A stretch of DNA of 44,335 nt from a virus, in IMG/VR virus record IMGVR_UViG_3300044822_000103, positions 1 to 44,335 of that record; one strand, 5' to 3'. The notes beneath the pieces were generated by a model that ran no database searches, was not told the origin of the DNA, and saw only the letters and a list, made by a program, of their open reading frames with translations. The position numbers and the translations under genes are program-made. Of this stretch, positions 9,408-44,335 are shown piece after piece. Every line of letters begins with the position of its first letter. Position 1 is the stretch's first letter.

Positions 9408-9408
9408 G

Positions 9409-10690: not shown

Positions 10691-10739
10691 AGTGAAAATT
10701 CCTTGAAAAGAAAACTAGGTGAAAGTGGGTTGAAGTGGG

Positions 10740-11168: not shown

Positions 11169-11169
11169 T

Positions 11170-12179: not shown

Positions 12180-12417
12180 ACTTGCCCTTCTGGCGCTTCG
12201 CGTGGATCACTTCGCGATGTTTCTCATTGGCCTCGAGCTCTTGCTCGATGCGCTCATTCTCTTCGGTGACATCCGGGGCCAATTGGCCGCCGTGACTCAA
12301 GAGGGTCTCGGCCACATCGGCGCCGACGTTGACACAACCGTCTTCATCGGCCTCGAGCGATACGGGTTCGCCGTTCACGGACAAGCCGCCAAAATTTTTG
12401 GGTAACAGAATTCGCAT
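12169..12417 (-). CDS. Small hypothetical head-region protein
   Basis: 82 aa. ATG at 12417 is chosen because AAGGAAA precedes it at good spacing. It starts MRILLPKNFGGLSVNGEPVS and ends in a charged helix (ENERIEQELEANEKHREV). Such small proteins with a beta-rich start and helical tail are common between capsid and connector genes; function unknown. It is the first gene after a hairpin terminator following the capsid gene. Confidence 0.7.
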   Translation of the reverse strand: MRILLPKNFGGLSVNGEPVSLEADEDGCVNVGADVAETLLSHGGQLAPDVTEENERIEQELEANEKHREVIHAKRQKGKYDR

Positions 12418-12433
12418 GGATTTTCCTTGTGAT

Positions 12434-12456
12434 AAAGAAACGCCCCTTGCGGGGCG
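12434..12456 (-). terminator. Intrinsic terminator downstream of major capsid gene
   Basis: On the minus strand a perfect 6-bp stem, CGCCCC/GGGGCG, closed by a GCAA tetraloop, is followed by TTTCTTT. It lies between the capsid gene and the 82-aa gene, so it probably lowers expression of downstream connector and tail genes relative to the capsid. Confidence 0.75.
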
Positions 12457-12458
12457 CT

Positions 12459-12524
12459 CTATTCGGCTGCTTCGTCGTCCGCACCATCCGGGGGACCCCA
12501 TTCATCGGAGTCCCGCGGCGGCAT
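12459..12524 (-). CDS. Possible 21-aa acidic peptide
   Basis: A short frame from ATG 12524 to TAG 12459 encodes MPPRDSDEWGPPDGADDEAA plus Glu, strongly acidic. It fills the gap between the capsid stop and the terminator. No ribosome-binding site is clear. It may be chance; it is listed because its composition is unlike a random frame here. Confidence 0.22.
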   Translation of the reverse strand: MPPRDSDEWGPPDGADDEAAE

Positions 12525-12541
12525 GGAGAAGCTTGGGTTGA

Positions 12542-14044: not shown

Positions 14045-14058
14045 TGAAATAATGCTCC

Positions 14059-14083
14059 AAAAAAAAGCCCGCTATTTGCGGGC
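14059..14083 (-). terminator. Intrinsic terminator-like hairpin upstream of capsid gene
   Basis: Minus-strand stem GCCCGC/GCGGGC with a 5-base loop, followed by eight T. It lies between the protease gene stop and the capsid start, in the direction of transcription. Read-through, antitermination or a capsid-proximal promoter would be needed; alternatively it stabilises a processed capsid mRNA. Confidence 0.75.
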
Positions 14084-14119
14084 CTTCGGGGTTAGAAAAC
14101 GGTTAGAGAGTTTTAGGGT

Positions 14120-15280
14120 TTAGCCGACGATTCGGCCGCCAGTTCGGAAAGCCTTTTTGATGCCATCGAGCGCACGCATTTCGGGCGTTGCGTCTTTGGG
14201 TAATTCTGAATCTTGAATCGGGGTCTCGACGTCATCGCCCTTGGCAATGGCTTTCAAGAGCGCTTTGCCGGGCATCGGCTGCGCCTCGAGGATCTCCAGG
14301 CGTGCAGAGAGTTTGGTGATCAGGTCGTCGCGCTTCGCGAGCTCGGCTTTGACCAAGTCCGCGGCGGCGACTTTCGCAAGCTCGGTTTTTGCGAGCTCGG
14401 CTTTATCCAACGCTTCCGCAGCGCTCGGTCCCATGGGGCACGGGCCAGGGCCTTGTACGCCTGCGATACCGGCAGGTCCGACTTTCGTCGCCTCGACCTT
14501 GGCTAGTTCCACCGCTGCAGCTTTCGCCGCATCGTCGGCCGGCGCGTCTGCCGGCTCATCCGCATCTTGATAATTGAGGGCGCTCATTTTGTCGCACACC
14601 GACTGGGCGGTGGCGTGGACGTCGGCGAGGGCCGCTTGGGTCTTCGCGGAGAACTGCTTGCCGGCTTTGGCGACGGCTTCCACTGCGGGAACCACTTCTG
14701 CGGCAGGCTCGACTTTGGGCTCAACCTTGACCAGCGAGTCCTTCGCGGCCTTCAAAATCTGCGAGGGCGTGATGGTCTTGCTGTTCAGCATCTCGGCAAT
14801 GTCGGCAATGGCGGATTTCTCGAGGTCTGCAACCTCGTCCGTGCTCTTTTCCGCCTTGAACATCGTGAACACCGCATCCGGGTTTGCCGGGCGGTCGACC
14901 AGGGACACCTCGACCAGCTTGAGGCCCGTGATGATGGTCTTGTTCACAGGATCCCGCGAGGTGGCCTTGCCGCCGATCGAGAAGCCCTTGTAGACGCCGT
15001 GCGAGATCTTCTTGACCGCAATCGGATCAATGATGTGCGCGCCGAACGTCGTCTTGCCCACTTCATCGACCGCAATCTCGATGGCCGTTCCTGCAGCGGA
15101 ACTTCCGTGCATTTCGCGGACCGCGCCGAACTTCATATAGTCCGGAATCGCGGCTTTCATCGCATCCGGGGTGATGGTCTCGCCGTCGGAGTCTTTGGCA
15201 TCCGATGAGGCAAAGCCCCACACTTTTAACGTGCCATCGTCCTGCGGTTCGGTCTTCGAGATATCGGCGTAAAGTTTCAT
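14120..15280 (-). CDS. Prohead serine protease fused to scaffold-like domain
   Basis: 386 aa. The N-terminal ~150 residues resemble the XkdF/prohead protease group: VWGFASSDAKDSDGETITPD, then AVREMHGSSAAGTA with a candidate catalytic His, YKGFSIGGKA with a candidate Ser, and LVEVSLVDRPANPDA. The remainder is a long Ala/Lys/Glu-rich helical region (KAELAKTELAKVAAADLVKA), like a capsid scaffold that the protease would digest. It lies directly before the capsid gene, so the fusion can assemble and mature procapsids. Catalytic assignments are by pattern. Confidence 0.85.
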   Translation of the reverse strand: MKLYADISKTEPQDDGTLKVWGFASSDAKDSDGETITPDAMKAAIPDYMKFGAVREMHGSSAAGTAIEIAVDEVGKTTFGAHIIDPIAVKKISHGVYKGFSIGGKATSRDPVNKTIITGLKLVEVSLVDRPANPDAVFTMFKAEKSTDEVADLEKSAIADIAEMLNSKTITPSQILKAAKDSLVKVEPKVEPAAEVVPAVEAVAKAGKQFSAKTQAALADVHATAQSVCDKMSALNYQDADEPADAPADDAAKAAAVELAKVEATKVGPAGIAGVQGPGPCPMGPSAAEALDKAELAKTELAKVAAADLVKAELAKRDDLITKLSARLEILEAQPMPGKALLKAIAKGDDVETPIQDSELPKDATPEMRALDGIKKAFRTGGRIVG

Positions 15281-15299
15281 AATCGAGTCCTTAAAGTTG

Positions 15300-16064
15300 T
15301 CAATCGTCGCCTGAGATGTCGCTCAGTACGGGTAATACATCGCACCGGCAATTCGGGTGCGCCGGCGGATCGCCGACATCGGGAAAATCATCATCCAAGT
15401 CGACTTCCATCCCATTGAGCGCCTCGCACTCATCGCAACATCCTTCACCGGTGATCCAACGCTTGGAAGCCACCTGGCCTGACACACGGTAGGCTTCAAG
15501 GTTGCCGCCAATATCGGCTTTAGCGGTTTCGGTTCGGGCGATCGTTTCTGCTCGAGCATCCGAGAACGCGTACATCTCGGAGAGGTTGTCGGCGAGCTCG
15601 TCATTGCTCATGCCGGTCTCGATCGCATCGGCAATATCGTCTTTCACCATGTCGCGCGTGGTATCACTGATGACCCACTCGGCGTTCGGATTCGGCACCC
15701 TCTCGCCGTCTTTCATCTTCATGCCGATCATTTCGGCGGCCCGGTCGTTCGCGTAATCGAGTGCGTACTGATTCAGCTGGTCGGTGATCGACTCATCGGC
15801 CACGAAGCCGATCTGAGCGAGAGCTTTTGCAGCGCCCTCGTTCGTGATGCGCTCGAGCAGCGCGCTCGACTCATCGGCCAGGAGCCCCAACTTGCCTTGA
15901 GCGATCTCGCCCAGGACCTCATCAATGATCGCCTGATCGTCCTTGCGCAGCGTCTTCAGGCGCTTGCCGATGGCGGTCTGCCAGCTCGAGAACTGCTTTT
16001 TCAGTAGCGATGCAAACTGGTCTCGGCTCTTGTCCGTGTAGCTGCGATCAAGGGCGCGGATCTG
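15300..16064 (-). CDS. MuF-like minor head protein, probably made as portal fusion
   Basis: The frame encodes about 254 aa from the slippery run at 16064-16072 to TGA at 15300. The C-terminal part has the MuF signature: ARTETAKADIGGNLEAYR, GEGCCDECEALNG, PPAHPNCRCDVLPV. The homologous-looking N-terminal part (RALDRSYTDKSRDQFASLL) has no ATG/GTG/TTG; the first candidate is a TTG at 15890 without a ribosome-binding site. The frame is -1 relative to the portal and joins it at AAAAAAAAC. MuF proteins sit inside the capsid near the portal, so a portal fusion would be structurally sensible. Confidence 0.85.
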   Translation of the reverse strand, partial: QIRALDRSYTDKSRDQFASLLKKQFSSWQTAIGKRLKTLRKDDQAIIDEVLGEIAQGKLGLLADESSALLERITNEGAAKALAQIGFVADESITDQLNQYALDYANDRAAEMIGMKMKDGERVPNPNAEWVISDTTRDMVKDDIADAIETGMSNDELADNLSEMYAFSDARAETIARTETAKADIGGNLEAYRVSGQVASKRWITGEGCCDECEALNGMEVDLDDDFPDVGDPPAHPNCRCDVLPVLSDISGDD

Positions 16065-17488
16065 TTTTTTTTAGTGACGGCGTTGCGCCCGCCGATGGGT
16101 GCCTTGCCGCTGCCCGCTTTTCCGGGCGGCGCATTGCCACTCGGCGCACCCTTCGGCGGCGGATTGCCCTGTGCATCCAACATCGGCGGCGGCGGCGGAT
16201 TCAGCAATTCTTGCTGTTCCGGCGTTAACGGTTCTCGACCCATGTCTTGCCGAACTTCATCCGGCGTCAACACTTTGCCGGCGAGATAGATTTGGGCCAC
16301 CTGGGCGGCAATGAGGGGATCGTTGTCCGCCTCTTTGACCCAGTCGAAACACAAATCGGGGGCTTGGAAATACCGCTGGATGACATCGGTCATCGTGTCC
16401 TTGACCCAAGCCATCAAGGGAACCAAGCCTTCGTCCTTCGCCGCATCGGCTGACGTATCAGAGGTCGCGCGATTCTGGGTCTTGATGAACGGGGTCGGGG
16501 CGATCGAGAAGGCGAAGCACACGATGCGCGCGAGCCATTCGTCGTACTCGTCCTTCAACTGCCCCGCTTTGGTCTCCAGGATCTTGCCGCCGCCGGGGAT
16601 GAACTTGGCTTTGCGTCTCTGCGCGGTGTTGCCCTCGAGCATCGCGTCGAACCAGTTCTGGATCTGCTTGATCTGATCGGGCTGCCAGGTTTCAGGCACC
16701 TGAATCAGCATGTCGGGGACGTTGCCTTCGGTGTACGCCTGCAGCTGAAAGGTCTGGCGTCTCAGAGCAATGTTCACCGTCATGATGATCTGCTCGACGG
16801 GTGAGTAGCCGAAGATCTTGTGCGTGCGCGGATTCTGCGGCGCGTAGATCAGCTCGTCCCTCGAATAATCGACCGCCGGCATACCCTTGATGATCTGCTG
16901 GTAAGCAGGATCCGGCGGGAGTGGCGTCCGTCCGCTCGAATCAATAACCCGCTTGATGGTGGATCCGTCGACCAGCTCCAAGCCATACAATCCCCCGCCG
17001 CGGTTCATGCGCGGGTACATGGTCGGGGCATCGATGACGAGTAAGTCCTCGAGCAGCATCCGGAGCCAGATGTTCCAGTTGTGTTCCTGGTCGGGCTTTT
17101 TCAAAAACTGTTGGATCGCGAGACAGCGCGCATCCGAGGTGCCCTTCGGGTCCACCGGCGTCACGGTCCAATCTTGGGCGCAGATCTGATCCTTGCGCGT
17201 CTGGATCACGAGTCTGAGGACGTCATACCCATCGGCCAACGCCCGCATCTGCGCAAAGCTCACCGCCTCCGTTGCACGGGGCGTGTACTGGATGTTGGTG
17301 TTGACGTCGAAATCAAATGCCCGACCGACCGCTTGGGTCTGCGCTTGCGGGGCCAATGGTTGACCTGGCCCGAACCAGTCGGAGGGCTGGACACCGGACA
17401 GCGTATAGCGCACGCCCTGCACCAGTCGGGCAATGACGCCCGGCTTGATCGCGGTTTGGGTCGCGTCGGATTTTAAGTTGCCGGCCAT
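16001..17488 (-). CDS. Portal protein
   Basis: 495 aa in the zero frame. Portal features: FAQMRALADGYDVLRLVIQT, then YGLELVDGSTIKRVID, DELIYAPQNPRTHKIFGYSP, and a C-terminal region with a proline-rich stretch (NPPPPPMLDAQGNPPP). It forms the dodecameric DNA gate that TerL docks on. The last 21 residues (from NRSAPLIAATRT) look out of character and lie beyond an A8 C run. At that run a -1 shift would continue into the MuF-like frame. ATG at 17488 overlaps the previous gene. Confidence 0.93.
   Translation of the reverse strand: MAGNLKSDATQTAIKPGVIARLVQGVRYTLSGVQPSDWFGPGQPLAPQAQTQAVGRAFDFDVNTNIQYTPRATEAVSFAQMRALADGYDVLRLVIQTRKDQICAQDWTVTPVDPKGTSDARCLAIQQFLKKPDQEHNWNIWLRMLLEDLLVIDAPTMYPRMNRGGGLYGLELVDGSTIKRVIDSSGRTPLPPDPAYQQIIKGMPAVDYSRDELIYAPQNPRTHKIFGYSPVEQIIMTVNIALRRQTFQLQAYTEGNVPDMLIQVPETWQPDQIKQIQNWFDAMLEGNTAQRRKAKFIPGGGKILETKAGQLKDEYDEWLARIVCFAFSIAPTPFIKTQNRATSDTSADAAKDEGLVPLMAWVKDTMTDVIQRYFQAPDLCFDWVKEADNDPLIAAQVAQIYLAGKVLTPDEVRQDMGREPLTPEQQELLNPPPPPMLDAQGNPPPKGAPSGNAPPGKAGSGKAPIGGRNAVTKKNRSAPLIAATRTRAETSLHRY
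16064..16072 (-). other. Slippery run A8C at portal/MuF junction
   Basis: The coding strand reads ACT AAA AAA AAC AGA in the portal frame. It contains the classic heptamer A-AAA-AAC. Slipping back one base gives AAA AAA CAG and enters the MuF frame, which is closed by TAA just upstream. A homopolymer sequencing error fusing two frames would look the same. Confidence 0.7.
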
Positions 17489-17685
17489 AGTCTCTCATCG
17501 ATGTAGGAATCGCCGATCCCGGCAAAGTCGGTCTGCACGAGGCGGAAGGTGTCGCGGTTCAAGTCGCTCTGACCGTCCCACTCGCACACCCCGATGACGC
17601 GGCCCTTCCGATCAACCATGGCGTAGCGTTCGGTGGAAGGTGAGCATGTGCTCACCTGTGGGTCCGAAAGCTGAGCCTGGTTCAT
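17473..17685 (-). CDS. Small hypothetical protein, paralogue of next upstream gene
   Basis: 70 aa. The core YAMVDRKGRVIGVCEWDGQS...RLVQTDFAGIGDSYID parallels YALIDSTGTVVNLPLWDGVT...VLVQSDTAQIGDVYD in 17682-17867, so the two are tandem paralogues. This small beta-rich module is often found at the end of phage fiber or accessory proteins. It overlaps the portal by 16 bp and its paralogue by ATGA. An 18-bp palindrome (GGTGAGCATGTGCTCACC, 17638-17655) lies inside it. Confidence 0.75.
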   Translation of the reverse strand: MNQAQLSDPQVSTCSPSTERYAMVDRKGRVIGVCEWDGQSDLNRDTFRLVQTDFAGIGDSYIDERLWPAT

Positions 17686-17867
17686 GGGTTTGGGCTGGTG
17701 AAATTCGTGCCGTCGTACACATCGCCGATCTGCGCGGTGTCGGATTGCACCAGGACGTAGGGCACCCCCGATTCATCGGTCGGTTGGTACTCGGTGACGC
17801 CATCCCAGAGCGGCAAGTTCACAACCGTTCCCGTCGAGTCGATCAGTGCGTAGGTTTTGATGGTCAT
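17682..17867 (-). CDS. Small hypothetical protein (WDG module)
   Basis: 61 aa, ATG at 17867 with GAGGAAA upstream. Pattern YALIDSTGTVVN, LPLWDGVTEY, QIGDVYDGTNF. A single short beta-rich module also seen fused to phage fiber proteins. It lies between the glycine-rich protein and its shorter paralogue. Function unknown; a fiber- or head-associated role is inferred from neighbours. Confidence 0.75.
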   Translation of the reverse strand: MTIKTYALIDSTGTVVNLPLWDGVTEYQPTDESGVPYVLVQSDTAQIGDVYDGTNFTSPNP

Positions 17868-17875
17868 GGGTTTCC

Positions 17876-18853
17876 TCAGAAGGTCGTGGTGACGATCATG
17901 TAAGCCGCACCGCCCCCACCGCCGATACCCGCCGCGCCCGTCGAGAGCGCGGAACCACCGCCGCCGCCACCACTGCCGCGTGCGCCCGCGCCGCCCGCGC
18001 CGCCCGTGAACGTCGAGATAGCCGAGCCACCGCCCGCGCCGCCGTAGGCAAAGCCGATGGCTGAGAGCGCGGCAGCACTTGCGCCCGCGCCACCATTGCC
18101 GCCAGATCCAGCAGCGCCGGCGGCGACTGCGGTAGCCACGGCGACATAGGACGCGCTACCGCCGCCCGCTGTCGTACTGGGCGTCGCCGTGACTCCACCG
18201 CCGCTCGCGCCGCCTTGCGGACCCGCACTGAGAATGCCCGCACCACCGCCAGCCCCGGCACCTCCGTTCACGCCGCCGCCTGACCCCGGCCCGATCAGGG
18301 CTAAGGACACGTTCACGCCCGATGCCCCTGATGCGCCCGTTGCCCCGAATGCGCTCCCGCCCGCGCCTCCCGCAGTCCCCGTCGCTTGACTGCCTGCGCT
18401 CCGGGTGCTCGCACCACCACCACCGCCCGACGCCGCATTGGACACACCCGGCGCTCCACCGCCGCCGCCATAGGCGGTCAGGAGACTGCCGAACGTCGCA
18501 CTGCCGCCATTGCTGCCCGCCGCGCCCGCAGCGCCACCCGCGCCCCCGCCTGGGATTGTCACTGTGACGGAAGACGGGACGTTGGCTGCGACAAAGGTTT
18601 GATCGACCAGGACCGCAGGACCGCCACCGCCACCGCCCGAACTCGACGTACCGGATGCAGTTGTGATGCCACCACCGCCACCGCCGCCCGAGCCGTTGCC
18701 CTGCACGCGGATCAACTGCGCGCCGGTCGGTTGCGTATAGGTTCCCGACGATGGGAACGCCTGGATGTTGACCTTGAGGCCATACACGCCCAAGTCCGTG
18801 AGGCGCACCGCGTCGTTCGGATTGACAGGGGTTACACCCGCTTGCTGTCTCAT
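17876..18853 (-). CDS. Glycine-rich fiber/adhesin-like protein
   Basis: 325 aa. A ~50-residue N-terminal domain (VNPNDAVRLTDLGVYGLKVN) is followed by long glycine tracts broken by short hydrophobic strands (AVLVDQTFVAANVPSSVTVT). The motif QLIRVQGNGSGGGGGGG resembles the start of polyglycine-rich domains in phage adhesins, which pack as polyglycine-II sandwiches. It likely forms or tips a fiber. It follows the collagen-like gene in the same transcript. AAGGTGAG precedes the ATG. Confidence 0.8.
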   Translation of the reverse strand: MRQQAGVTPVNPNDAVRLTDLGVYGLKVNIQAFPSSGTYTQPTGAQLIRVQGNGSGGGGGGGITTASGTSSSGGGGGGPAVLVDQTFVAANVPSSVTVTIPGGGAGGAAGAAGSNGGSATFGSLLTAYGGGGGAPGVSNAASGGGGGASTRSAGSQATGTAGGAGGSAFGATGASGASGVNVSLALIGPGSGGGVNGGAGAGGGAGILSAGPQGGASGGGVTATPSTTAGGGSASYVAVATAVAAGAAGSGGNGGAGASAAALSAIGFAYGGAGGGSAISTFTGGAGGAGARGSGGGGGGSALSTGAAGIGGGGGAAYMIVTTTF

Positions 18854-18884
18854 CGGATGCTCACCTTCATATCCCTGTGCTGTG

Positions 18885-20738
18885 TCATCCGATCACCACG
18901 CCGTTCATCTGATTCAAGGTGGGCGCCGTCTGAAAAATGACCGTCACCGCGTTCAACCCGTGGGTCACATCGCAATCGGGTTCGACTCCGGTTGCGGCGT
19001 ACCAAGCATCGAACGAGTAAAAGAGTGAATTGATGTTGTGGGTCAGCGTGAACGTCGTCGTCACCCCGTCCCCGAAGATGAAGGGATACTTCGCCGTGAG
19101 CGCCACGCCGTTCGCGTAGACCGCACCCGCGACGTTGACCGTGCCCGCGCCTTTATCCCCGCCCGTGGGCGAACCGACTTGCACGCCGGTGCCCGAGAAC
19201 TGCGCGCCACCCGCGCTGACCAGGAGCGCCATGCTGCCTGCGCCCGCGCTGTTGGCTGCCACGATGGCGGCATAGAGCGGGTTGGAACTGGTGTTGCTCG
19301 CTTTGAGCGCAATCCCGTTCGAGGTCGCGTCGATCGCGTCCCCGGCTGAATTGATCATGGAGAGCGACGTGCCGTTTATGACGGCGGGCAAATCCGCCGT
19401 GACCAGGGCGCGAAGGGCTGAGACGGCCGTACCGCCGCTGACGGCCGTCGCCAAAACTTGATTCGCGGCGCCTGAAGGTGCTGGACCGGCAGGGCCAGTG
19501 GCGCCTGTCGCACCCGCTGCACCGTTTGTCCCGGCTGCACCTGTGGCACCGGCCGCTCCCGTGGCGCCTGTTGCGCCCGTAGCGCCAGTCGGTATCCCAA
19601 AATTGAATGTCGCCGCCGAGCTGGTGCCTGAGTTGCCTACCGTGGGTGACGCCCCGGCGGCGAGAGGGGTTGCCGTGCCGGCGGCGATGGTGGCCGCGGC
19701 GCCCGCAGGCCCCGTTGCGCCTGTAGAGCCGGTGGCTCCCGCCGCACCATTTGTGCCGTTCGTGCCGGCCGCTCCCGTGGCGCCTGTTGCGCCCGTAGCG
19801 CCAGTCGGTATACCGAAATTGAAGACGGCCGCCGCGGACGTGCCCGAGTTGCCGACGGTCGGCGTGGATCCTGTCGGAAGTGCGCTGGCGGTACCGGCGG
19901 CGATGGTCGCTGCCGCTCCAGCTGCGCCCGTGGCTCCAGCCGCACCCGCGGTCCCGGTTGTCCCGGTCGGTCCTTGCGGACCTGTGGGACCGGTGAGGCC
20001 AATGGGTCCTTGAGGCCCTGTGGCGCCCGCAGCGCCGTTCGTACCCGCGGCGCCGGTGAGGCCGGTAGGTCCTGTCGGACCTGTCGCGCCTGTAGCACCT
20101 GTCGGACCTGCTGGCCCCGTCAATCCGATCGGGCCCTGAGGTCCTGTGGCTCCAGTAGCGCCCGTGGCGCCAGTCAAACCGATGGGCCCGGTGGCTCCAG
20201 CGGGTCCGGTTGCGCCGGTCAGGCCCGTTGGCCCTTGGGGTCCCGCAGCGCCCGTGAGTCCAATAGCACCTTGCGGGCCCGTCGCCCCGGTCAAGCCCGT
20301 GGGTCCCGTCGGTCCCGCCGAACCGGTGAGCCCCGTCGCACCGATCGGCCCCGCAGGTCCTATCGAGCCGGTGAGCCCCGTGGGTCCGGTAGGCCCTTGC
20401 GCGCCGGTCAATCCAATAGCGCCAGAAGTTCCCGTCGGACCGGTCGCACCCGTAGGACCTATCGGTCCCTGCGCCCCTTGCGCTCCGGTGTTGCCCGACA
20501 ATCCCGTGGGACCGATGGGCCCTTGAGGTCCGGTCGCACCCGTGGCACCTTGAGCGCCTGAAGGCCCTTGAGGACCGATCGCGCCCACCCCTGCCGGCCC
20601 TTGAAGTCCGGTCGGGCCTTCAGGACCTTGCGGCCCCTCGAGCCCCGATTGCACGGTGATGGCCACCGCGGGCGGTTGGGTCACAATGACGTTCACCGGC
20701 GGCGGTAGCGCCACCGTGACCGTCACCTCATCGATCAC
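18885..20738 (-). CDS. Collagen-like fiber protein
   Basis: 617 aa. The N-terminus ([19 protein letters not shown]) leads into well over one hundred Gly-X-Y triplets ([13 protein letters not shown] type), which form a collagen triple helix. The triplets are interrupted by repeated ~45-residue modules with TVGNSGTS(A/S)[10 protein letters not shown]. The C-terminal ~150 residues are non-collagenous ([20 protein letters not shown]) and probably the trimeric head. The protein is a virion fiber; whether on head or tail is open because it lies between TerL and portal. Confidence 0.9.
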
Positions 20739-21118
20739 GGCTTGGTGACTTCGCGAAACACCGAAATGACACCCTGGAGCGGGCTCCAGATGATGCCGGT
20801 CTGCGTGTTCTTGTCCTCCATATCCCAGATGTACTGGGAGAGCGGATCCAAGAGCGTGGGTCCGCAGGTCACCAGCGCGGTCAAACTCGCCGCCATGCTC
20901 ATCGCGGTGACACCGCTCGTGGGTACGCTCGAGGCAAAGCTGAAAACGCCCGCCGGCGAGATATCGCCGGGGAGCTTTCGCATCTGTGCCGAGAGCGCAC
21001 TGTATGTCAGGTCGTAGGGTGAGCCATCGGCATTCGTGAACGTCAACGACAAGAGCAGGTCCGCGCCCTGGCGCATGGCGAAGTCGAACTTCGCCCCGAC
21101 ATTCGAAATGCGCGTCAT
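20735..21118 (-). CDS. Hypothetical protein preceding collagen-like fiber
   Basis: 127 aa. Beta-rich, with [20 protein letters not shown] followed by [14 protein letters not shown], a layout seen in small phage proteins next to receptor-binding or head-fiber genes (reminiscent of BppU-type N-terminal domains). It overlaps the collagen-like gene by ATGA and TerL by ATGG-type coupling, so it is probably the fiber's attachment partner. Assignment by context only. Confidence 0.7.
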
Positions 21119-22383
21119 GGTGTCTCTTTGGCTTTCAACGCCGCAAGTTCATCCGTGGCGAAATCCACGAACCCGAAGCCTGAACGGCGAATCAGGGGCG
21201 CGAGTGCATAGCGCACCGCGTCCCAGATGTGATTGTGTTTATCGACGATGTCGGTCAGGACATCTCCGGTCAGCCGATCGGTTTTGAAGCTGTAGAGCTT
21301 CGCTTCCTCGATCGCATGGGCGCAGCGCGTGTGGATGACCACGCACTCAAACTGGCGGATGAACGCGATGCCATCCTCCACACTGCCCGGCCACTTCTCG
21401 GCTGCCGTTATGCGGGGATAGCCGTGGCGCTGCAGATAGCTGATCGTCTCCGGGCGGGAGTTGTCCCCACGGATCACATGGAGCTTTGCCCCGGCGATCT
21501 GGTCAAAGAGCTGCGGCACCGTATCGGTATCGCGGCCGATCGCCCACGCTTCCTGCTCAATGTATAGACAACGTCCATACACCCAGCACTTCACAAGCGT
21601 CGTGGGGTCCTGGCTGAAGCCCCAGTCCGCTCCAAAATAAGGTCCGTCCCAGTTACCCGGTACGAAATCCTCGATCCGGTACTTGCCCTTGAAGATCTGC
21701 GCCGCTGAGTTCGTGCGGAACTTGCCCTCCCAGACGTGCTGGTAGGCTTCCGGATCCACCCGGGCGAGATAGTCTTTCAGCCGGATCAATCGGTCCGAGA
21801 GCCACGGGTTATCGCGCCAGTTGGTCTCGATGATCCGGCTGTTCGGTACCGGATCGATCAGAAAGCGTTTTGACGTCGGGTCCGTGGCCAAGTCCGGGTT
21901 GAACCCGCACCAGATCTCCGACCCCGCCTTTCGAATCGTCGGTTCGACGATTTGCCAGCTGTTCTCGGTAACAGACTCGCCCTCCTCGATCCAGAGGATG
22001 TCGATGCCTTCGGTCGATTTGAACTTCCGCGGCTCGGTTTTGATGCCGGCGAAGAAGAATTCACTGCCGTTACTGGCAGTAATCGAGCGCTTGCCGATGT
22101 GAAAGTACGCATCGAGCCCCAGGCCCTCGATCTGGGCGCGCAAGGTCTGATGCACTGACTCATCGATTGAGGTCTGATACTCACGGGCACAGGCAATGCG
22201 CAGCTTTCGCTTGGCGGCCAGGAGTACTGCTGTTCGGGCAAAGCCCCAGGACTTCAGTCCGCCGCGGCCCCCGTGCATGACTTTGTAGTCAGACGGGATG
22301 TACTGACCTTGGGAATCAAAGAATAGATCACGAACCTTTGCTGCCAGAACTGGGGGTGCCAGAACCGGGTCCGCCATTGCCAA
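21115..22383 (-). CDS. terL: Terminase large subunit
   Basis: 422 aa. N-terminal ATPase: Walker A-like [10 protein letters not shown] (37-46), Walker [11 protein letters not shown] (127-136). C-terminal RNase H-like nuclease: [11 protein letters not shown] with its Asp, [10 protein letters not shown], and [13 protein letters not shown] carrying the last acidic residue. Matches the PBSX/XtmB-type large terminases. It packages DNA through the portal. It overlaps the TerS gene by 56 bp. Confidence 0.95.
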
Positions 22384-28544: not shown

Positions 28545-28587
28545 TCCCGTAAACGGGCTTGACTGGTCCCGCATACGGGACTATAGT
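28545..28587 (+). promoter_or_regulatory. Rightward early promoter with two operators
   Basis: TTGACT (28559-28564), 17 bp, TATAGT (28582-28587): near-consensus sigma70 promoter. The spacer contains TCCCGCATACGGGA (28567-28580), and a second operator, TCCCGTAAACGGG (28545-28557), sits upstream of the -35, centres 22 bp apart. It drives the rightward gene run starting at 28614. Confidence 0.85.
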
Positions 28588-37824: not shown

Positions 37825-37892
37825 GGCGAGAGTGTGCCTTGGCAAGGCCGATTCTGGCGAGCGGTGGGCGCGTTCCAGCCGAGATCGATGGT

Positions 37893-37904
37893 ACCCCTTG
37901 GGGT
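37893..37904. repeat. Palindrome ACCCCTTGGGGT before xis
   Basis: 12-bp perfect palindrome in the 145-bp gap between the small-gene array and the excisionase. It could be a terminator element or a regulator site for xis/int. No other gene is convincing in 37825-37969. Confidence 0.45.
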
Positions 37905-37969
37905 GGGGAAGGCCCCCCGGGCTTATCCTCGCGCGGCATGGGGGCGGATGCGCCCTATGGGGTTTGCCG

Positions 37970-38260
37970 ATGAAATGGGTGACGATCAAGAAGGCCGCGG
38001 AGCTCTCCGGGTATACCGAGAAGGCGATCGAGGCGAAACGGGCGGACGGGGTGTGGCTCGAGGGCATTGTCTGGATCAAAGCCCCCGATGGCCGTATTCT
38101 CATTTCAACAGAGGGGATAGACCAATGGGCCGAGGGACGGGTGTGCGCGCCGCAAGCGCCTCATCGATTGCAATCAGCTTCGAGTACAAGGGCGTCCGCT
38201 GCCGCGAAAAGCTCAAGCTCCCGCCAAACCCCGCCAACCTCCGGTACGCCGCCGGATTGA
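37970..38260 (+). CDS. Excisionase (AlpA/Xis-like)
   Basis: 96 aa from ATG 37970. The first ~55 residues match phage excisionase/HTH_17-type DNA-binding: VTIKKAAELSGYTEKAIEAK, then GVWLEGIVWIKAPDGRILIS. It directs excision together with Int. The last ~44 residues overlap the integrase start in another frame and look non-conserved. Confidence 0.82.
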   Translation: MKWVTIKKAAELSGYTEKAIEAKRADGVWLEGIVWIKAPDGRILISTEGIDQWAEGRVCAPQAPHRLQSASSTRASAAAKSSSSRQTPPTSGTPPD

Positions 38261-39321
38261 AAGCGACCATCGAGCACGAGATCGCGGTGGGCAGCTTCGA
38301 CTACGCCAAGCATTTCCCGAAGAGCCGGCGCGCGAAAGTGCTCGCGAAAGTCCCGGCAACCGTCATCACGGTGGGCGAGCTGCTGACTGATTGGCTGCGC
38401 GACACCCGCGCAGAATTGGAGCCTGAGACTTACGCGGACTACGCCGAGTACGTTGAGAACACCTGGCGCCCGCTATTGGGCAAGCGCTTGCTTTCGGATC
38501 TGACCGCGGCCTGGGTCTACGAGTGGATCGGCAAGCAGAAGAGGAGCAAGAAGCGGATCTTGAATCTTCTGACCCCGCTTCGCCAAGCGGCCAAGTACGC
38601 GGTTAAGCCGCGCAAGTTCTTGACCGAGGATCCGATCGGGAAGCTCACGGTGAAGCGGCCGGCGGGTATTGACGAGAGCGACGTGCTGATCGATCCGTTC
38701 ACGGCGGAGGAGATCGAGGCGATTCTGCCGCACTTGGAGCCCGAGCTCGCCGCCATGTGTCAGTTCTGGGTGTGGACCGGACTTCGGGTGGGGGAGCTGA
38801 TCGCGCTCAAGTGGTCGGACATCGATTTCGAGCGCAACATCGCGCGCATCACCAAAGCCGCCCGCGGCAACCGGCGCAAGGCTCCGAAAACGAAAGCCGG
38901 GGTGCGCGAAGTGAAACTCCTCCCGCCCGCATTAGAAGCGCTCCAACGGGCGAAGCCCTTCACCCGCCTCCTGCATGCGGAGATCTTCCAAGATCCCGGC
39001 ACGCGCCCGATGGGGAACAACCATGCGCCAAAACGGGCGATTGCTCCGTGGGCGAACGATAAGCAGATTCGCGTGCGCTGGCAGGCGGCGTTGAAAGCCG
39101 CCGGCGTGCGCTACCGCTTCCCGCGCCAGCTGCGTCACACCTATGCGTCGTGGATGCTGAAGTTCCGCGAAGACCCCGCGTGGATCTCCGCGCAGATGGG
39201 ACACAGGAACGTCTCGGTCACGCTGACGACGTACGCCAAGTACATCCCGGCGATGAACCCGAACGCGGGGATGGGCGCGTACGCGGCGATCATGGCGGCG
39301 AAGAACAAGGGACACGATTAG
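38125..39321 (+). CDS. int: Tyrosine site-specific integrase
   Basis: 398 aa. N-terminal DUF3596/arm-binding region (SIAISFEYKGVRCREKLKLP, FDYAKHFPKS), a core-binding SAM-like domain, and the catalytic domain: TGLRVGELIALKW (first Arg about 219), RQLRHTYASWML (second Arg, with His of the usual HxxR replaced by Arg), GHRNVSVTLTTYAKY (His and nucleophile Tyr near 369). It overlaps xis and reads directly into the tmRNA-like attP, so this is the integrase for that site. Confidence 0.94.
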   Translation: MGRGTGVRAASASSIAISFEYKGVRCREKLKLPPNPANLRYAAGLKATIEHEIAVGSFDYAKHFPKSRRAKVLAKVPATVITVGELLTDWLRDTRAELEPETYADYAEYVENTWRPLLGKRLLSDLTAAWVYEWIGKQKRSKKRILNLLTPLRQAAKYAVKPRKFLTEDPIGKLTVKRPAGIDESDVLIDPFTAEEIEAILPHLEPELAAMCQFWVWTGLRVGELIALKWSDIDFERNIARITKAARGNRRKAPKTKAGVREVKLLPPALEALQRAKPFTRLLHAEIFQDPGTRPMGNNHAPKRAIAPWANDKQIRVRWQAALKAAGVRYRFPRQLRHTYASWMLKFREDPAWISAQMGHRNVSVTLTTYAKYIPAMNPNAGMGAYAAIMAAKNKGHD

Positions 39322-39480
39322 GACACGGTCGGTTGCAAGCTGTTGTTTCACGTGGCGTGGACGGGGGTTCGATTCCCCCCGGCTCCACCATTTGGGCGGC
39401 TGAAATCGCGATTTTGGGGGCCCGGTACCCGCCTAAGTCCCCCCGAATCCCCCCGGCTGGGACACGATTGGGACACGATT
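39310..39480 (+). other. attP region: tmRNA 3' end core and paired arm-type repeats
   Basis: The core at 39355-39390 reads as the T-arm and acceptor end of a tmRNA (GGGGGTTCGATTCCCCC then CGGCTCCACCA). GGACACGATT repeats occur in two 11-bp-spaced pairs flanking it: 39310-39319 and 39321-39330 (GGACACGGTC), then 39460-39469 and 39471-39480. These are candidate integrase arm sites. The core rebuilds the host gene end after integration. A tRNA is possible, but GGAC before a GGGGG T-stem and ending GGCTCCACCA favours ssrA. Confidence 0.83.
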
Positions 39481-39494: not shown

Positions 39495-39758
39495 ATGGCC
39501 GGCAAGCGACCTACGAAGGACGAAATTATCGCCCATCTCGAAGCGCGGCTCGCCGCACTGGAGGAGGCTTTCAGCCGGATGGAAGACTGGGTGATCGACA
39601 CCCAGGACAACGTTCTGCCCTATGTCCTCATCAGTGAAAGCCGCGTGCGGGAGCTCAATTTCCAGCGCATAGAGGCACTGGCCAAAGCGAGGGCCGCTAC
39701 GGCCGCGGCCACTCCGAATCCAACCGCCGGCAATCCGCCAGCACCGTCTCGTACTTGA
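39495..39758 (+). CDS. Small coiled-coil protein right of attP
   Basis: 87 aa, GGAGGGG before the ATG. KDEIIAHLEARLAALEEAFS, then SESRVRELNFQRIEALAKAR: helical, Ala-rich C-terminus. Faces the lysis genes and overlaps the Rz 3' end by 62 bp. No family recognised; function unknown. Confidence 0.68.
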   Translation: MAGKRPTKDEIIAHLEARLAALEEAFSRMEDWVIDTQDNVLPYVLISESRVRELNFQRIEALAKARAATAAATPNPTAGNPPAPSRT

Positions 39759-40170
39759 CCTTCAGGGCTTCGATGAGGGGTCGAATATCGCGTCCAGGTC
39801 CTTCGATAGCTCCCCCGCCGGCGGAATCGCTGCCGCTGGCTTCGGGTAGACGGGGCACGGTACCGGCACATATCTGACCGTCGTGCAGCCAGATTGGAGT
39901 AGAGACAATCCGCAAAGGGATAGCAGCCAGATCTTTCGCATGTTGGGCCTCGGCGGGTTTTGCAATCAGGGTTTGGTATTTGGCTTCTTGTGCAGCGGCG
40001 GCGGTTTCGGCTTGAAGTTTCGTGATCGTCAACCGGGCCTCACAGGTGTGTTCCCCAATGGCCTGTTCGGCGTGGTCATGGTGGATCCAGGCGAGATACA
40101 TCCCGACGATCAGCACCAGGGCGCCCAGGGCTTCCGCCAAAGTGCGGTTCGAGAGGAGCAGCGCGATCAT
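39697..40170 (-). CDS. Rz: Inner-membrane spanin (Rz-like)
   Basis: 157 aa. N-terminal anchor (ALGALVLIVGMYLAWIHH) followed by a periplasmic coiled coil (EARLTITKLQAETAAAAQEA) is the i-spanin layout. A lipoprotein gene is nested in another frame inside it (39762-39941), the classic Rz/Rz1 arrangement. Together they fuse inner and outer membranes after endolysin action. Start ATG overlaps the upstream stop (ATGA). Confidence 0.88.
   Translation of the reverse strand: MIALLLSNRTLAEALGALVLIVGMYLAWIHHDHAEQAIGEHTCEARLTITKLQAETAAAAQEAKYQTLIAKPAEAQHAKDLAAIPLRIVSTPIWLHDGQICAGTVPRLPEASGSDSAGGGAIEGPGRDIRPLIEALKVKYETVLADCRRLDSEWPRP
39762..39941 (-). CDS. Rz1: Outer-membrane spanin lipoprotein (Rz1-like)
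   Basis: 59 aa from ATG 39941, fully inside Rz in another frame. Signal MRKIWLLSLCGLSLLQSGC has a lipobox LQSGC; the mature part is short and proline-rich (VRYVPVPCPVYPKPAAAIPP). It would be lipidated at Cys and reach the outer membrane to bind the Rz periplasmic domain. Confidence 0.88.
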   Translation of the reverse strand: MRKIWLLSLCGLSLLQSGCTTVRYVPVPCPVYPKPAAAIPPAGELSKDLDAIFDPSSKP

Positions 40171-40550: not shown

Positions 40551-40961
40551 TCATCCGATCAGCTCGGCTTCCGCTTCGCGCCGCTCGAGTAACCCCTCGA
40601 GGACCTGGCCGTTGCAGTGGTCCCACTTGAGTAATTCCGCTTTGGCGGCAATGAAGTTCCGCGCGTTCACATAGCCGCGTAACGCGCTCGAGCGGTAATT
40701 CCCAATCCCGAGATTGAAAATGAAATCCGTGAGCGCCGCTTGCGCGCCCGGGGCGAGCCCGGGGCTGTAGACATTCAAGAGCGTATCGGCACAATTCAAG
40801 TCATGCATCAGTTCCTCTTCCGCTTGTTCCGCAGTCCAGACGAGTCCCTGATAGACGTCCTTTCCGGTGTGGCCGTAACCAATCGTCCAGACGAGCGCGG
40901 GACATAGGTATGCCATGAGTTTGCACCCCTCGAACCGCCGCGCGAGGTCCTCCGCCGTCAC
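40551..40961 (-). CDS. GH24 endolysin (lysozyme), copy 2
   Basis: 136 aa from GTG 40961. Motif RRFEGCKLMAYLCPALVWTIGYGHTG gives the E-8aa-C-5aa-T catalytic pattern. C-terminal half: YVNARNFIAAKAELLKWDHC. The last ~60 residues' DNA is identical to copy 1 over 127 bp, the first part diverges (about 80% identity by eye). No signal peptide. The 32-aa membrane gene lies upstream as in copy 1. Confidence 0.92.
   Translation of the reverse strand: MTAEDLARRFEGCKLMAYLCPALVWTIGYGHTGKDVYQGLVWTAEQAEEELMHDLNCADTLLNVYSPGLAPGAQAALTDFIFNLGIGNYRSSALRGYVNARNFIAAKAELLKWDHCNGQVLEGLLERREAEAELIG
40610..40736. repeat. 127-bp exact repeat of window start
   Basis: Bases 1-127 equal 40610-40736 without mismatch, and 128 versus 40737 is the first difference. 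After it the copies diverge. The length equals a common assembly k-mer, so the start and this internal node may be an assembly-graph junction of a circular genome. Confidence 0.9.
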
Positions 40962-41056
40962 AGCCCACCGTTCCGTTCCCACTCCCGAATCGCCCAGTAG
41001 ACCCAGCCGAGTGCGATCGCGAGCATGGCCAACCCGCCCAAGATCCAATAGTTCAT
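40958..41056 (-). CDS. 32-aa single-span membrane protein in lysis cassette, copy 2
   Basis: MNYWILGGLAMLAIALGWVY then WAIREWERNGGL: close paralogue of 349-447. Overlaps the upstream gene (ATGA 41053-41056) and the lysozyme GTG. Likely lysis-related; function unproven. Confidence 0.7.
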   Translation of the reverse strand: MNYWILGGLAMLAIALGWVYWAIREWERNGGL

Positions 41057-41310
41057 TTGGCAAGTGCCGTGTAATGGCCCAAGACAATGCCGAACACTAA
41101 GAAGGTAAACGCGGTGGCGATCAGCCAACCCTTCGCCGCTTTGATCACGGGCAGAATCTCTTTCGCTTCGAGCACTTCGGCGCGCAGTTCCGCAATTACG
41201 GATTTGACGTGCGCGAGATCGGCGTGCGCGACTTGGGCAACGTCGGTCTCGACGTGTGCGAGATCGGCCGCCGCGTCATTCTTCACTGCTACTAATTCTG
41301 TTTCTGTCAT
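41053..41310 (-). CDS. Putative holin-like protein, copy 2
   Basis: 85 aa. Helical start (AADLAHVETDVAQVAHADLA), C-terminal span (GWLIATAFTFLVFGIVLGHY). Paralogue of 444-692 with a nearly identical C-terminal span and more diverged helix. Position before endolysin suggests holin/antiholin. Confidence 0.75.
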   Translation of the reverse strand: MTETELVAVKNDAAADLAHVETDVAQVAHADLAHVKSVIAELRAEVLEAKEILPVIKAAKGWLIATAFTFLVFGIVLGHYTALAK

Positions 41311-41348
41311 AGGTGTTCCTTACTTGAGGTAGAGATATCGGAGCCCCG

Positions 41349-42110
41349 TCATGCCGTTGTCGCGAACCAATCGCAGAGCCCGCCATTGCCGTTCTGGTAC
41401 GAAAATCCAGTCGTGGTGATGCTGCCCGGCACGACCCAGCCCGTATCGGGCGAGCCATAATTCCATTGCACGAATACGCGCGGCACACTCGCGAACGTGT
41501 AGCCGAACGGAACAGGGACCGTGCCCGCGGCGCACGTGAACGTGCCGCTCTGTACCAGCGCTGCGAGCGCCCGGGCGATGAACGCCGTGTTCGCAATCGA
41601 TGTATCGTTATCCCCGAGTGTGGGCGTCGGCGTCGTCGGGTTGCCGGTCAAGGCGGGCGAGGCTTTGGGCGCCAACAGCGCGATCGCGTTATCTAACGCG
41701 AGCACATCGGCGGTCACTGCCGCACTCGTCGCTAACGGCGCGACCGCACTCGAGAGCTGCGCGGGGGTCACATACGGGAGCAGCGCCCATTTCGTCGGGG
41801 AAGTGGCGGGCGTGTTGCCGATGTTCCCGGCAACGAGCGATGCGTAGAGGATATTGTCAGGTCCGCGCGTCACGTCATTGACGACGTAGGTTTCCGCCGC
41901 ATCGTAATCGGCAATGCCGCGGCGGCAGAAATAACGCACCGCATTCATGCAGTAATTCAAGAGCCAGTTAAAGCGCTGGCGCGACGGAGGCGTGGTCGAG
42001 AGCGGCCAGCCCGTCGACACCGCACTATTCCCCGGATCGACCATATCGGCCGACGTCATGGCGTCATCGCCCCAGGCATCCCGAACGGCGGGTTTTACAA
42101 TCGTACCCAT
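41349..42110 (-). CDS. Tail fiber-like protein
   Basis: 253 aa from ATG 42110 with GGAGGC upstream. N-terminal part (VSTGWPLSTTPPSRQRFNWL) and TSIANTAFIARALAALV, then a beta-rich C-terminus (VPRVFVQWNYGSPDTGWVVP, SYQNGNGGLCDWFATTA) resembling tail fiber ends. This gene and those upstream have no counterpart on the left side. Confidence 0.8.
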   Translation of the reverse strand: MGTIVKPAVRDAWGDDAMTSADMVDPGNSAVSTGWPLSTTPPSRQRFNWLLNYCMNAVRYFCRRGIADYDAAETYVVNDVTRGPDNILYASLVAGNIGNTPATSPTKWALLPYVTPAQLSSAVAPLATSAAVTADVLALDNAIALLAPKASPALTGNPTTPTPTLGDNDTSIANTAFIARALAALVQSGTFTCAAGTVPVPFGYTFASVPRVFVQWNYGSPDTGWVVPGSITTTGFSYQNGNGGLCDWFATTA

Positions 42111-42120
42111 CAAAGCCTCC

Positions 42121-43029
42121 TCAAGGCGTGTAAGTGATACTGCCGATCGCAACCCCGGCGGGGCGCGGCAGAATGTCCAAGGCGGTGAGCAAGGCCTGAT
42201 CGGTCGGGCTGATCGGCACGGGAATGGTGATCGCGAGGGAGAGCGTGCCGTTGTCGGCAACGCTGCACGGCACCCCGAAGATGTCCTGGAGGGCGAGTTC
42301 GATCGCCGGACGCGTCCCGGAGGATTGGTTCCGCACGATGGCCGCTTTCAAGATGGTGAGATACGCCGCATCGTTCAAAGTGGTGGAACCGGCTGCGGTC
42401 GCCCCTTCCTCGTAGAACACCCCGCCGATCGAGGGGTTTGTTTCCTCACCGAAGCTCAACGCCGCGACGTCATCCGCGAAGCCGAAGAAGCCCTGCACCA
42501 GAACCGTCTCGATCACGCGGGGTTGCCCGACCCAGAGGCCGATGATGTCCAACTGGTTGCCGACGGCTAAGTCTAAATCGAACGCCGGTTGAATGGCTTG
42601 GGTTGCCTGCACGATGTCCGCGATGCTGTTCGTGAGAAGTCCGACCAAGGCCATGAAGTTCGGTTTCTGGTTGTGCTCGCTGGTGATGAGATTTGCGTAC
42701 GCCGCACCGCTCGGGAGCACGCTCGGCGCGGGCCCAGAGGAGACGACAAAGTCGACCGCGGTTCCGGCTGCGATGGTCCCGGTGAGTGACTGACTGATCA
42801 CCAAACCCGCGGCGCTCGCGCTCGCGATGATGCTCAGCGACCCGACGTTCAGGTCCGCGGCAATGAGGGCTGCTGACGCCTCCGCCTGCGTGTCCCCGAT
42901 GAGATTCGGGACCGTGACTTCGGCCGCAAACGGATTCCCGGTTTCGGGCGCCCGAATCGGGGATTGCAGCGCTTGCGGCCGCAAAGCCGAGAGCGGCAGC
43001 CGCTGGACGAGCGGAACGACCGTCGTCAT
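42121..43029 (-). CDS. DUF2612 baseplate-type protein with PASTA domain
   Basis: 302 aa. The N-terminus VVPLVQRLPLSALRPQ is short, then a PASTA-like segment (EVTVPNLIGDTQAEASAALI to IAAGTAVDFVVSSGP). The rest is DUF2612: ITSEHNQKPNFMALVGLLTN, AVGNQLDIIGLWVGQPR. DUF2612 proteins are baseplate components usually of contractile or complex tails. The same N-terminal phrase occurs in the 41-aa gene upstream. Context differs from the left GTA-like tail tip. Confidence 0.82.
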   Translation of the reverse strand: MTTVVPLVQRLPLSALRPQALQSPIRAPETGNPFAAEVTVPNLIGDTQAEASAALIAADLNVGSLSIIASASAAGLVISQSLTGTIAAGTAVDFVVSSGPAPSVLPSGAAYANLITSEHNQKPNFMALVGLLTNSIADIVQATQAIQPAFDLDLAVGNQLDIIGLWVGQPRVIETVLVQGFFGFADDVAALSFGEETNPSIGGVFYEEGATAAGSTTLNDAAYLTILKAAIVRNQSSGTRPAIELALQDIFGVPCSVADNGTLSLAITIPVPISPTDQALLTALDILPRPAGVAIGSITYTP

Positions 43030-43155
43030 TTAGCTATGCCGGGGCGTCGCGGGCGGGGGGTTGCCGGTCTGCCAGGCTTTGACCGGCGTGTTCGGGGACT
43101 GCGGGCGCAAATTAGTCAAGGGGAGCCGCTGCACCACGGGGATCACTTGCGCCAT
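43030..43155 (-). CDS. 41-aa paralogue of DUF2612 N-terminus
   Basis: MAQVIPVVQRLPLTNLRPQS then TPVKAWQTGNPPPATPRHS. It aligns with the first ~35 residues of the next gene (VVPLVQRLPLSALRPQ...TGNP). Start overlaps the upstream stop (TGATG). It may be a truncated copy or a small partner using the same docking peptide. Confidence 0.65.
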   Translation of the reverse strand: MAQVIPVVQRLPLTNLRPQSPNTPVKAWQTGNPPPATPRHS

Positions 43156-44060
43156 CAGCTCTCCCAGAGCATGCAGGTGCCCCAATTCGGCGAGTTCTGA
43201 TTGCCCACAAGCAGCCCCAAGCAGCCGCCCGTCTGGATAAAGGTGCGCGGGGTGCTCCCCACCACCGCCAGGCTAAACGAGGTGCCTAACGGAACCTCAG
43301 AGAGGAGCGCCACGCAGCGCTTGGCATCGACTTGGATCGCCGGGGCGAGTGCGAAGACCGGTTGTGCTTGGATGTTCCCACCCGCGTAGGAACTGGTGAG
43401 CCCATACGGCCACATTGCCAATGGCGGGTTGAGCATGAAATTGCCGCTCGTCGGAAATTTCAGATTGGCGGGCGCGGCAATCGTGTACCCGAAGGTCTCC
43501 TGACGCCAGTCCGAGTACGCACCCAACTGCACGTTGAACGCATCCCCGGTGACCGCGCCCGTCGTGTCGTTGGTGCGGCTGATGCAAAAGCCGAGCCCAT
43601 TACCGGGATTGCCCTGCATACCGGCCTTGAGTGCTACGCCTAAAAATCCATCCGCCGCGCGATAGCACATGTACGAGGGATAGGCGTTCGAGAGGGTGGT
43701 GGCGCATTGGAGGAGCTGCGCGTTCGATTTCAATGTGCCGGTGATGTTGCCCGCGCCATCCGACCCCTGCCCGACCGTCAGTTGCAGTTCGGGATGGTTC
43801 GCCCCGAAAGCCCCGTACTCCAACTTGAAGAAAATCGGGTTCCCGGCCTGGTTCGCGTCATTGAACGCCCAAATCTCATAGCCCACGATGCCGGTTCCGC
43901 CATAGCTCCCCACCGAAGCGCTCGCCCAATTGATCTGCCCGGTGTCGGCGGTTTTGGTCAAGCCGATCGCCGCCAACTGCGCGCTGATCTGCCCGCCCCA
44001 GGCTTGAAAGTTCGCATCCGTGTCGCAGTCGATGGGGCTTACGAATTGAGAAGTCGGCAT
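43155..44060 (-). CDS. Tail-associated hypothetical protein
   Basis: 301 aa from ATG 44060 (MPTSQFVSPIDCDTDANFQA). Beta-rich, with WGGQISAQLAAIGLTKTADTG, YEIWAFNDANQAGNPIFFKL and NGLGFCISRTNDTTGAVTG. Looks like a conserved virion/fiber protein in phages that carry DUF2612. Longer upstream starts are not supported. Function in receptor recognition is inferred from place. Confidence 0.75.
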   Translation of the reverse strand: MPTSQFVSPIDCDTDANFQAWGGQISAQLAAIGLTKTADTGQINWASASVGSYGGTGIVGYEIWAFNDANQAGNPIFFKLEYGAFGANHPELQLTVGQGSDGAGNITGTLKSNAQLLQCATTLSNAYPSYMCYRAADGFLGVALKAGMQGNPGNGLGFCISRTNDTTGAVTGDAFNVQLGAYSDWRQETFGYTIAAPANLKFPTSGNFMLNPPLAMWPYGLTSSYAGGNIQAQPVFALAPAIQVDAKRCVALLSEVPLGTSFSLAVVGSTPRTFIQTGGCLGLLVGNQNSPNWGTCMLWES

Positions 44061-44070
44061 GGTGTACTCG

Positions 44071-44335
44071 TTAGGTGACGGTGAAGGTGACGTTCGCGTT
44101 GGCCGCGACCGCCGCTTCGTTGTAGGCAAGCTGGATATCCGCGCTCACGGGAGTCGCGGTGTTTTTCTGCAAAGTCATGGCAGTGATGTTGAACGTCCCC
44201 GCATAGGCAGTTCCCAACAGAGACGCGGGTACGATCAGGCCGAAGTAGCTCACATCCGCCCCGATCGGCAGCGCCTCCAGGAACGTCACCAGAGCGGCGG
44301 CAATCAGGGGTTCGGTCGAGGCCGACCAGCCGGAC
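44071..44335 (-). CDS. Partial tail-region protein, 5' end off window
   Basis: The frame is open to the window edge: SASTEPLIAAALVTFLEALP, GLIVPASLLGTAYAGTFNIT, ending NANVTFTVT. TAA at 44071-44073. At least 87 aa seen. Beta-rich, probably a small tail or fiber component of the right-hand module. The start lies beyond the window. Confidence 0.6.
   Translation of the reverse strand, partial: SGWSASTEPLIAAALVTFLEALPIGADVSYFGLIVPASLLGTAYAGTFNITAMTLQKNTATPVSADIQLAYNEAAVAANANVTFTVT

What the first reader, a model, noticed from the sequence alone, without database searches (positions are those of the whole stretch)
40551..41310. Two diverged lysis cassettes joined to different tail modules
The order holin-like, 32-aa membrane protein, GH24 lysozyme occurs at 692-1 and 41310-40551 with related but distinct sequences. 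One is preceded by a GTA-like tail tip, the other by DUF2612/fiber genes. Two phage types sharing the spanin-attP side would explain it, as would tandem prophages in ssrA or a true duplication.
Basis: partly seen in the sequence, partly recalled or inferred. Interest (0 to 1): 0.7.

Follow-up and report, generated by a model that had tools for sequence, protein, structure and literature searches.

The report
Two phages merged in one contig
The two sets of cell-bursting genes most likely belong to two different bacterial viruses whose DNA the assembly software joined where they share an identical stretch, so this is probably not one virus with a duplicated cassette.

Summary
The two lysis cassettes are real (1-703 against 40610-41321, 82% identity), but they probably do not sit in one genome. 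The first 127 bases of the contig are identical to 40610-40736, and base 128 is the first mismatch. 127 is the largest k-mer of the JGI metaSPAdes recipe, and a related closed IMG/VR contig has a terminal overlap of exactly 127. The window looks like a closed 40,609-base temperate siphovirus-like phage A (GTA-like tail, one lysis cassette, spanin, attP in ssrA, integrase) with a 3.6-kb arm of a second phage B running into it inside the lysozyme gene. Arm B (baseplate-wedge end, DUF2612, fibre) is a contractile-tail module in its relatives; A already has a non-contractile set. On other contigs the two tail types occur apart, each with its own endolysin and spanin. Tandem prophages cannot be excluded without reads. 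A true duplication is unlikely. What remains is ordinary mosaicism: two phages of different tail type share at least 127 identical bases of lysozyme beside 81%-identical sequence, implying recent exchange. Interest is low.

The parts
1..127 (.). Junction k-mer V, copy at the contig start (lysozyme 3' part)
   Evidence: Exactly 127 nt identical to 40610-40736, mismatch at 128
40610..40736 (.). Junction k-mer V, internal copy
   Evidence: in a k=127 graph the window breaks into unitigs 1-40736 and 40610-44335
2..373 (-). GH24 lysozyme A, truncated by the contig end; completed in frame if base 1 is joined to base 40609
   Evidence: Pfam Phage_lysozyme E 1.2e-26; in-frame join
349..447 (-). 32-aa membrane protein A
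444..692 (-). holin-like protein A, 82 aa, one C-terminal hydrophobic segment
   Evidence: no family hit
1026..5123 (-). GTA-like tail tip of phage A with a weak C-terminal Hint/intein-like match
   Evidence: Phage-tail_3 E 3.9e-32, Rcc01698_C E 7.4e-16; phrog_1101
5232..22383 (-). Structural genes of phage A: DUF2163/gp84-like, DUF2460, tape measure, connectors, portal, terminase large subunit
37834..39321 (+). Tyrosine integrase
   Evidence: Pfam Phage_integrase E 1.3e-17
39309..39390 (+). attP core: tmRNA (ssrA) 3' end only; the tRNA-like 3' end lies at about 39359-39390
   Evidence: Rfam tmRNA E 2.6e-12, 35.3 bits, under the gathering score of 47; no whole tmRNA gene
39697..40170 (-). Rz-like spanin with a nested Rz1-like ORF at 39762-39965
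   Evidence: phrog_3198 Rz-like E 9e-4 for the nested ORF; relatives in L007, L008, L075
40551..40982 (-). GH24 lysozyme B; its 3' part (40551-40736) is on the side shared with A
   Evidence: Pfam Phage_lysozyme E 3.7e-32 on the longer ORF 40551-41087
40958..41056 (-). 32-aa membrane protein B
41053..41310 (-). holin-like protein B, 85 aa
41349..42260 (-). tail fibre of arm B
   Evidence: phrog_2631 E 2.5e-13
42121..43029 (-). DUF2612 baseplate-type protein with an N-terminal PASTA domain
   Evidence: PF11041 E 8e-35, PASTA E 1.8e-8
44071..44334 (-). C-terminal end of a baseplate-wedge (J-like) protein, cut by the contig end
   Evidence: phrog_6 E 0.006; 57% identical to the 394-aa wedge protein of L074
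1..40609 (.). Proposed closed genome of phage A
   Evidence: Self-overlap of exactly k=127; siphovirus-like gene set
40737..44335 (.). Proposed arm of a second phage, B

Best explanation
The window is a composite metagenome contig. Bases 1-40609 are one closed temperate phage, A: a siphovirus-like virion with a GTA-like tail, one holin / 32-aa / lysozyme cassette, Rz-like spanin, attP in ssrA and an integrase. Bases 40737-44335 are the late arm of a different phage, B, with a contractile-tail (baseplate, DUF2612, fibre) module and its own holin / 32-aa / lysozyme start. The two share an identical stretch inside the lysozyme gene (V, at least 127 nt). In a k=127 de Bruijn graph both arms run into V, so the assembler printed arm B, then the whole A circle once, and stopped on meeting V again. 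Shown: the k-length overlap flush with the contig end, the tail types, and the separate occurrence of the two arrangements in relatives. Inferred: closure of A, which strain arm B comes from, and how far B follows A beyond V. In each phage the cassette would work in the usual way: the holin opens the inner membrane, GH24 lysozyme cuts the wall, the spanin finishes lysis (established knowledge, not tested here).
For: (1) The contig's first 127 bases, and no more, recur at 40610. (2) 127 is the top k of the metaSPAdes recipe in a paper that calls metaSPAdes the standard JGI metagenome assembler (PMC10434106, passages seen), and a related IMG/VR record, G006, closes on itself with exactly 127. 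(3) A toy k=127 graph of circle A plus arm B gives exactly two unitigs, 1-40736 and 40610-44335, whose merge is the window. (4) Joining base 1 to 40609 completes lysozyme A in frame. (5) Phage A has terminase, portal, tape measure, DUF2460, DUF2163/gp84-like and Phage-tail_3 tip, while arm B's relatives are baseplate-wedge phages: L074 has tape measure, baseplate hub, wedge, DUF2612, fibre; a circular Myoviridae record has wedge, DUF2612, then a gene matching the B fibre. (6) In one other metagenome (3300050821) the two arrangements sit on different contigs: L075 wedge-DUF2612-fibre-GH24-Rz, L007 tail tip-endolysin-Rz. (7) Closed G006 has tail tip, then Rz, then a convergent integrase, the order predicted for circle A.
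Against: No reads, coverage or assembly graph were available, and closure of A rests on the overlap alone. The in-frame join is weak evidence, since any homologous lysozyme would give it. If B is a real phage it must leave A's path somewhere after V, and that branch should itself have broken the contig unless its coverage was low or paired reads resolved it (scenario 2 breaks at the exit). No other held viral contig contains V or the contig's last 80 bases, so no neighbouring contig of the same graph was seen. The 127 calibration is one closed record among the 10 whose ends were read; one other had an overlap of 69.
Confidence: 0.74

Rival explanations
1. Tandem prophages in one host chromosome: prophage A, then at the shared att core prophage B, both inserted in ssrA. 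The contig runs from inside lysis cassette A through A, the core, the spanin and lysis cassette B.
For: Order int A - ssrA 3' end - spanin - lysis B is exactly what a tandem pair gives, and the core carries only the tmRNA 3' end. The overlap at V would arise here too, because spanin and lysozyme 3' ends collapse (scenario 3).
Against: The host-side copy should make a second branch at the att core (unitigs break at 39341-39467), yet the contig runs through it. No host sequence is visible in the window. It also needs A and B to share the lysozyme-spanin stretch, so it adds an assumption to the best explanation without removing one.
Confidence: 0.14
2. True duplication: one phage carries both cassettes, and A's lysozyme continues past V into a part of the genome missing from the contig.
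For: The two cassettes have the same three-gene order and are clearly homologous.
Against: A contig end flush with a k-length repeat is the mark of a graph junction, not of a gene. The genome would need two tail-end systems of different virion type. In the 7 fetched relatives where the lysozyme matched (L003, L004, L005, L006, L075, L085, L086) there is one lysozyme place each in the stretch held.
Confidence: 0.05
3. Template-switch or library chimera: arm B was joined to A by chimeric reads in the conserved lysozyme gene, and B's true 3' end is not identical to A.
For: The junction falls inside homologous sequence, where template switching is favoured (general knowledge, not from a call).
Against: A chimera must outcompete B's own genuine continuation in coverage; the identity break sits in sequence only about 81% identical.
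Confidence: 0.07

Closest known systems
k-mer overlap at graph junctions / circular contigs of de Bruijn assemblers
   Same: Overlap exactly k, flush with a contig end; G006 closes with 127
   Different: The repeat is internal at one side, so an end-repeat test misses it although most of the contig may be a closed genome
Mosaic exchange of lysis/att modules among temperate phages (recalled as a general pattern)
   Same: Related cassettes joined to different tail modules; junction in a conserved gene
   Different: The partner is known only as a 3.6-kb arm; extent of sharing unknown
Closed IMG/VR phage G006 (L008)
   Same: Tail tip, Rz, convergent integrase; terminal overlap 127
   Different: Rz 46% identical; no lysozyme match
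Myophage late modules (L074, L075, MW202455.1)
   Same: Wedge protein, DUF2612, fibre in the order of arm B; in L075 followed by GH24 lysozyme and Rz
   Different: No N-terminal PASTA segment matched in these relatives

Membership tests
Assembly-graph composite (k-mer junction) | Exact repeat of length k, flush with a contig end, mismatch at k+1 | tested here: met
   127 nt, mismatch at 128
Assembly-graph composite (k-mer junction) | k equals the assembler's setting | tested here: inconclusive
   The window's own assembler is unknown; JGI recipe has k up to 127 (PMC10434106); G006 overlap 127
Assembly-graph composite (k-mer junction) | Coverage step between the parts, read pairs linking 1 to 40609 | not testable with these tools
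   No reads held
Closed temperate siphovirus-like genome (A) | Packaging, head, tail, lysis and integration genes present once each | tested here: met
   the major capsid protein is not named by the libraries (12542-14044 hits only phrog_13692, unknown)
Contractile-tail late module (B) | Baseplate wedge gene, DUF2612, then fibre | tested here: met
   Wedge C-terminus phrog_6 E 0.006 and 57% identity to L074; in arm B a 324-aa unknown ORF lies between wedge and DUF2612
Contractile-tail late module (B) | Sheath and tube genes | not testable with these tools
   Upstream of the contig end
ssrA-integrating phage | tmRNA 3' end next to the integrase gene | tested here: met
   39309-39390
Tandem prophages | Host ssrA or host flank next to one prophage | tested here: inconclusive
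   No tRNA/tmRNA gene found in the window, but the expected flank lies outside it

The most novel reading that the evidence does not exclude
A siphovirus-type and a contractile-tail temperate phage living in the same host recently exchanged the distal lysis / spanin / attP (perhaps integrase) arm, with the crossover inside the endolysin gene, so that 'end of lysozyme - spanin - att' travels as a portable exit-and-integrate unit between virions of different tail type.
Probability: 0.4. Interest if true: 0.35.

Novelty: not a real feature. Interest (0 to 1): 0.13.

Why it matters
It warns that a viral contig without end repeats can hold one complete circle plus a stray arm of another virus, and that an exact repeat of length k at only one contig end is the sign to look for. 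'Two lysis cassettes' read from such a contig is misleading. For phage biology it is one more case of lysis-module sharing across tail types.

Tried and rejected
Scans that led nowhere: exact 127-mer V and the last 80 bases against viral contigs (0 matches each; near records may be left out by the tool); megablast of 1-24000 against phages (no match); lysozyme and tail-tip protein searches in 5 genomes or records (0 of 5 each); DUF2612 in 16 records and in the L056 genome (0 of 16 and 0 of 1; the tool says such empty answers prove little). PF13550 rang in 1 of 16.

Considered and rejected: a recombinant of A that rejoins the A genome, because the contig's far end (44335) has no second copy in the window, so arm B does not return into circle A at k length. 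Natural terminal repeat of a linear phage, because the second copy is internal, 3.6 kb from the other end.

Results against neatness: G013 shows a terminal overlap of 69, not a k of the recipe, unexplained. L005 ends in a 77-nt exact match inside L006 of the same metagenome, suggestive of k=77, but that pair is highly similar anyway, so chance is not excluded. Of the four loci that are whole contigs (L005, L006, L011, L017) none shows its own end repeated inside (0 of 4).

Full report
OBSERVATION. The two cassettes exist as described. Blastn aligns 1-703 with 40610-41321 at 82%. The three products pair up one to one: holin-like 82 and 85 aa, 32-aa proteins that differ at 3 positions, and GH24 lysozymes. 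In the lysozyme overlap 41 of 124 codons differ, 35 of them synonymously, so both copies look functional and long diverged.

THE KEY DETAIL. The match is not evenly 82%. Bases 1-127 equal 40610-40736 exactly, base 128 differs, and from 128 to 540 identity is 334 of 413 with a longest run of 25. A run of 127 at that identity has probability about 2e-12. It is flush with the first base of the record. The window is a whole virus record of 44,335 bases. A paper that calls metaSPAdes the standard JGI metagenome assembler ran it with k = 33,55,77,99,127 (PMC10434106, passages seen). I read the ends of 10 of the 16 related records then in hand: G006 overlaps itself by exactly 127, G013 by 69, the other 8 by 0-2. 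A toy graph at k=127 cuts the window into 1-40736 and 40610-44335. That is a loop plus an arm.

WHAT THE PARTS ARE. Loop A: terminase, portal, head morphogenesis, connectors, tape measure, DUF2460, DUF2163/gp84-like, Phage-tail_3 tip, then lysis cassette A, Rz-like spanin, the 3' end of tmRNA at 39309-39390 and a convergent integrase. Joined at 40609/1 the lysozyme reads through in frame, which is necessary but not sufficient for closure. Arm B: C-terminus of a baseplate wedge protein, a 324-aa unknown, PASTA-DUF2612, fibre, lysis cassette B. DUF2612 matches 437 phage records; 6 of the 20 rows listed have a baseplate J protein annotated under the match. The nearest relative, L074 (74% in DUF2612), has tape measure, hub, wedge, DUF2612, fibre.

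RELATIVES. Of 14 DUF2612 loci, 10 also match the wedge C-terminus and 6 the fibre at E <= 0.01; 3 carry a lysozyme match in the stretch held, and 1 (L075) carries wedge, DUF2612, fibre, GH24 lysozyme and Rz in that order. Of the 2 loci related to the A tip, both have DUF2460 and DUF2163 before it and neither matches DUF2612; in L088 a lysozyme-like ORF follows the tip (my reading of the translation, no family search). L007, from the same metagenome as L075, has tip, an endolysin and Rz. G006 is a closed genome with tip, Rz and convergent integrase. L009, with an integrase 64% identical, has yet another late module beyond its att side. So the same end of the genome is seen with several tail types, each in its own phage.

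MECHANISM. The simplest account is a loop-and-arm graph: both lysozyme arms enter V; the A loop returns to V; the assembler prints arm plus loop. The identity jump also means that A and B share this stretch by recent exchange, unless the join is a chimera. How far B follows A after V is unknown, because the graph merges them. The toy graph also shows that any exit of B from A's path, or a host branch at att in the tandem case, should have broken the contig (scenarios 2 and 3). One unseen branch is thus needed in either account; reads would decide.

VERDICT. The double cassette is most likely not a feature of any one genome. Host: unknown; the closest integrase (81% aa) lies in a Rhodospirillales MAG contig, L056, whose DNA match runs to 39485, past the tmRNA 3' end.

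Noticed in passing
window 1026-1430 (C-terminus of 1026-5123, minus strand): The GTA-like tail tip ends in a Hint/intein-like domain (Pfam Intein_splicing E 0.0013, residues 1276-1321, below cut-off) finishing in HN plus three residues; the relative in L088 ends without it.
   Followed up: partly
window 27908-27921, 28545-28558, 28567-28580: Three palindromic sites of type TCCCGTANACGGGA (5 strand matches, 0.03 expected) around a possible early control region; likely repressor operators.
   Followed up: partly
window 42121-43029: PASTA domain fused in front of DUF2612; relatives match only the DUF2612 part. A short motif (VVQRLPL..LRPQ-like) recurs in the 51-aa ORF at 43030-43185.
   Followed up: no
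window 19549-19980: Two tandem 216-nt units (71% identical) inside a collagen-like tail-fibre gene of phage A.
   Followed up: no
G013 (L046/L047): IMG/VR record with an exact 69-nt terminal overlap, not a k of the usual recipe.
   Followed up: no
L056 1-3296: Rhodospirillales MAG contig with an 81% identical integrase; its match to the window (84% DNA) extends about 95 bases past the tmRNA 3' end, so this contig too may cross an attP or a prophage-prophage joint.
   Followed up: partly
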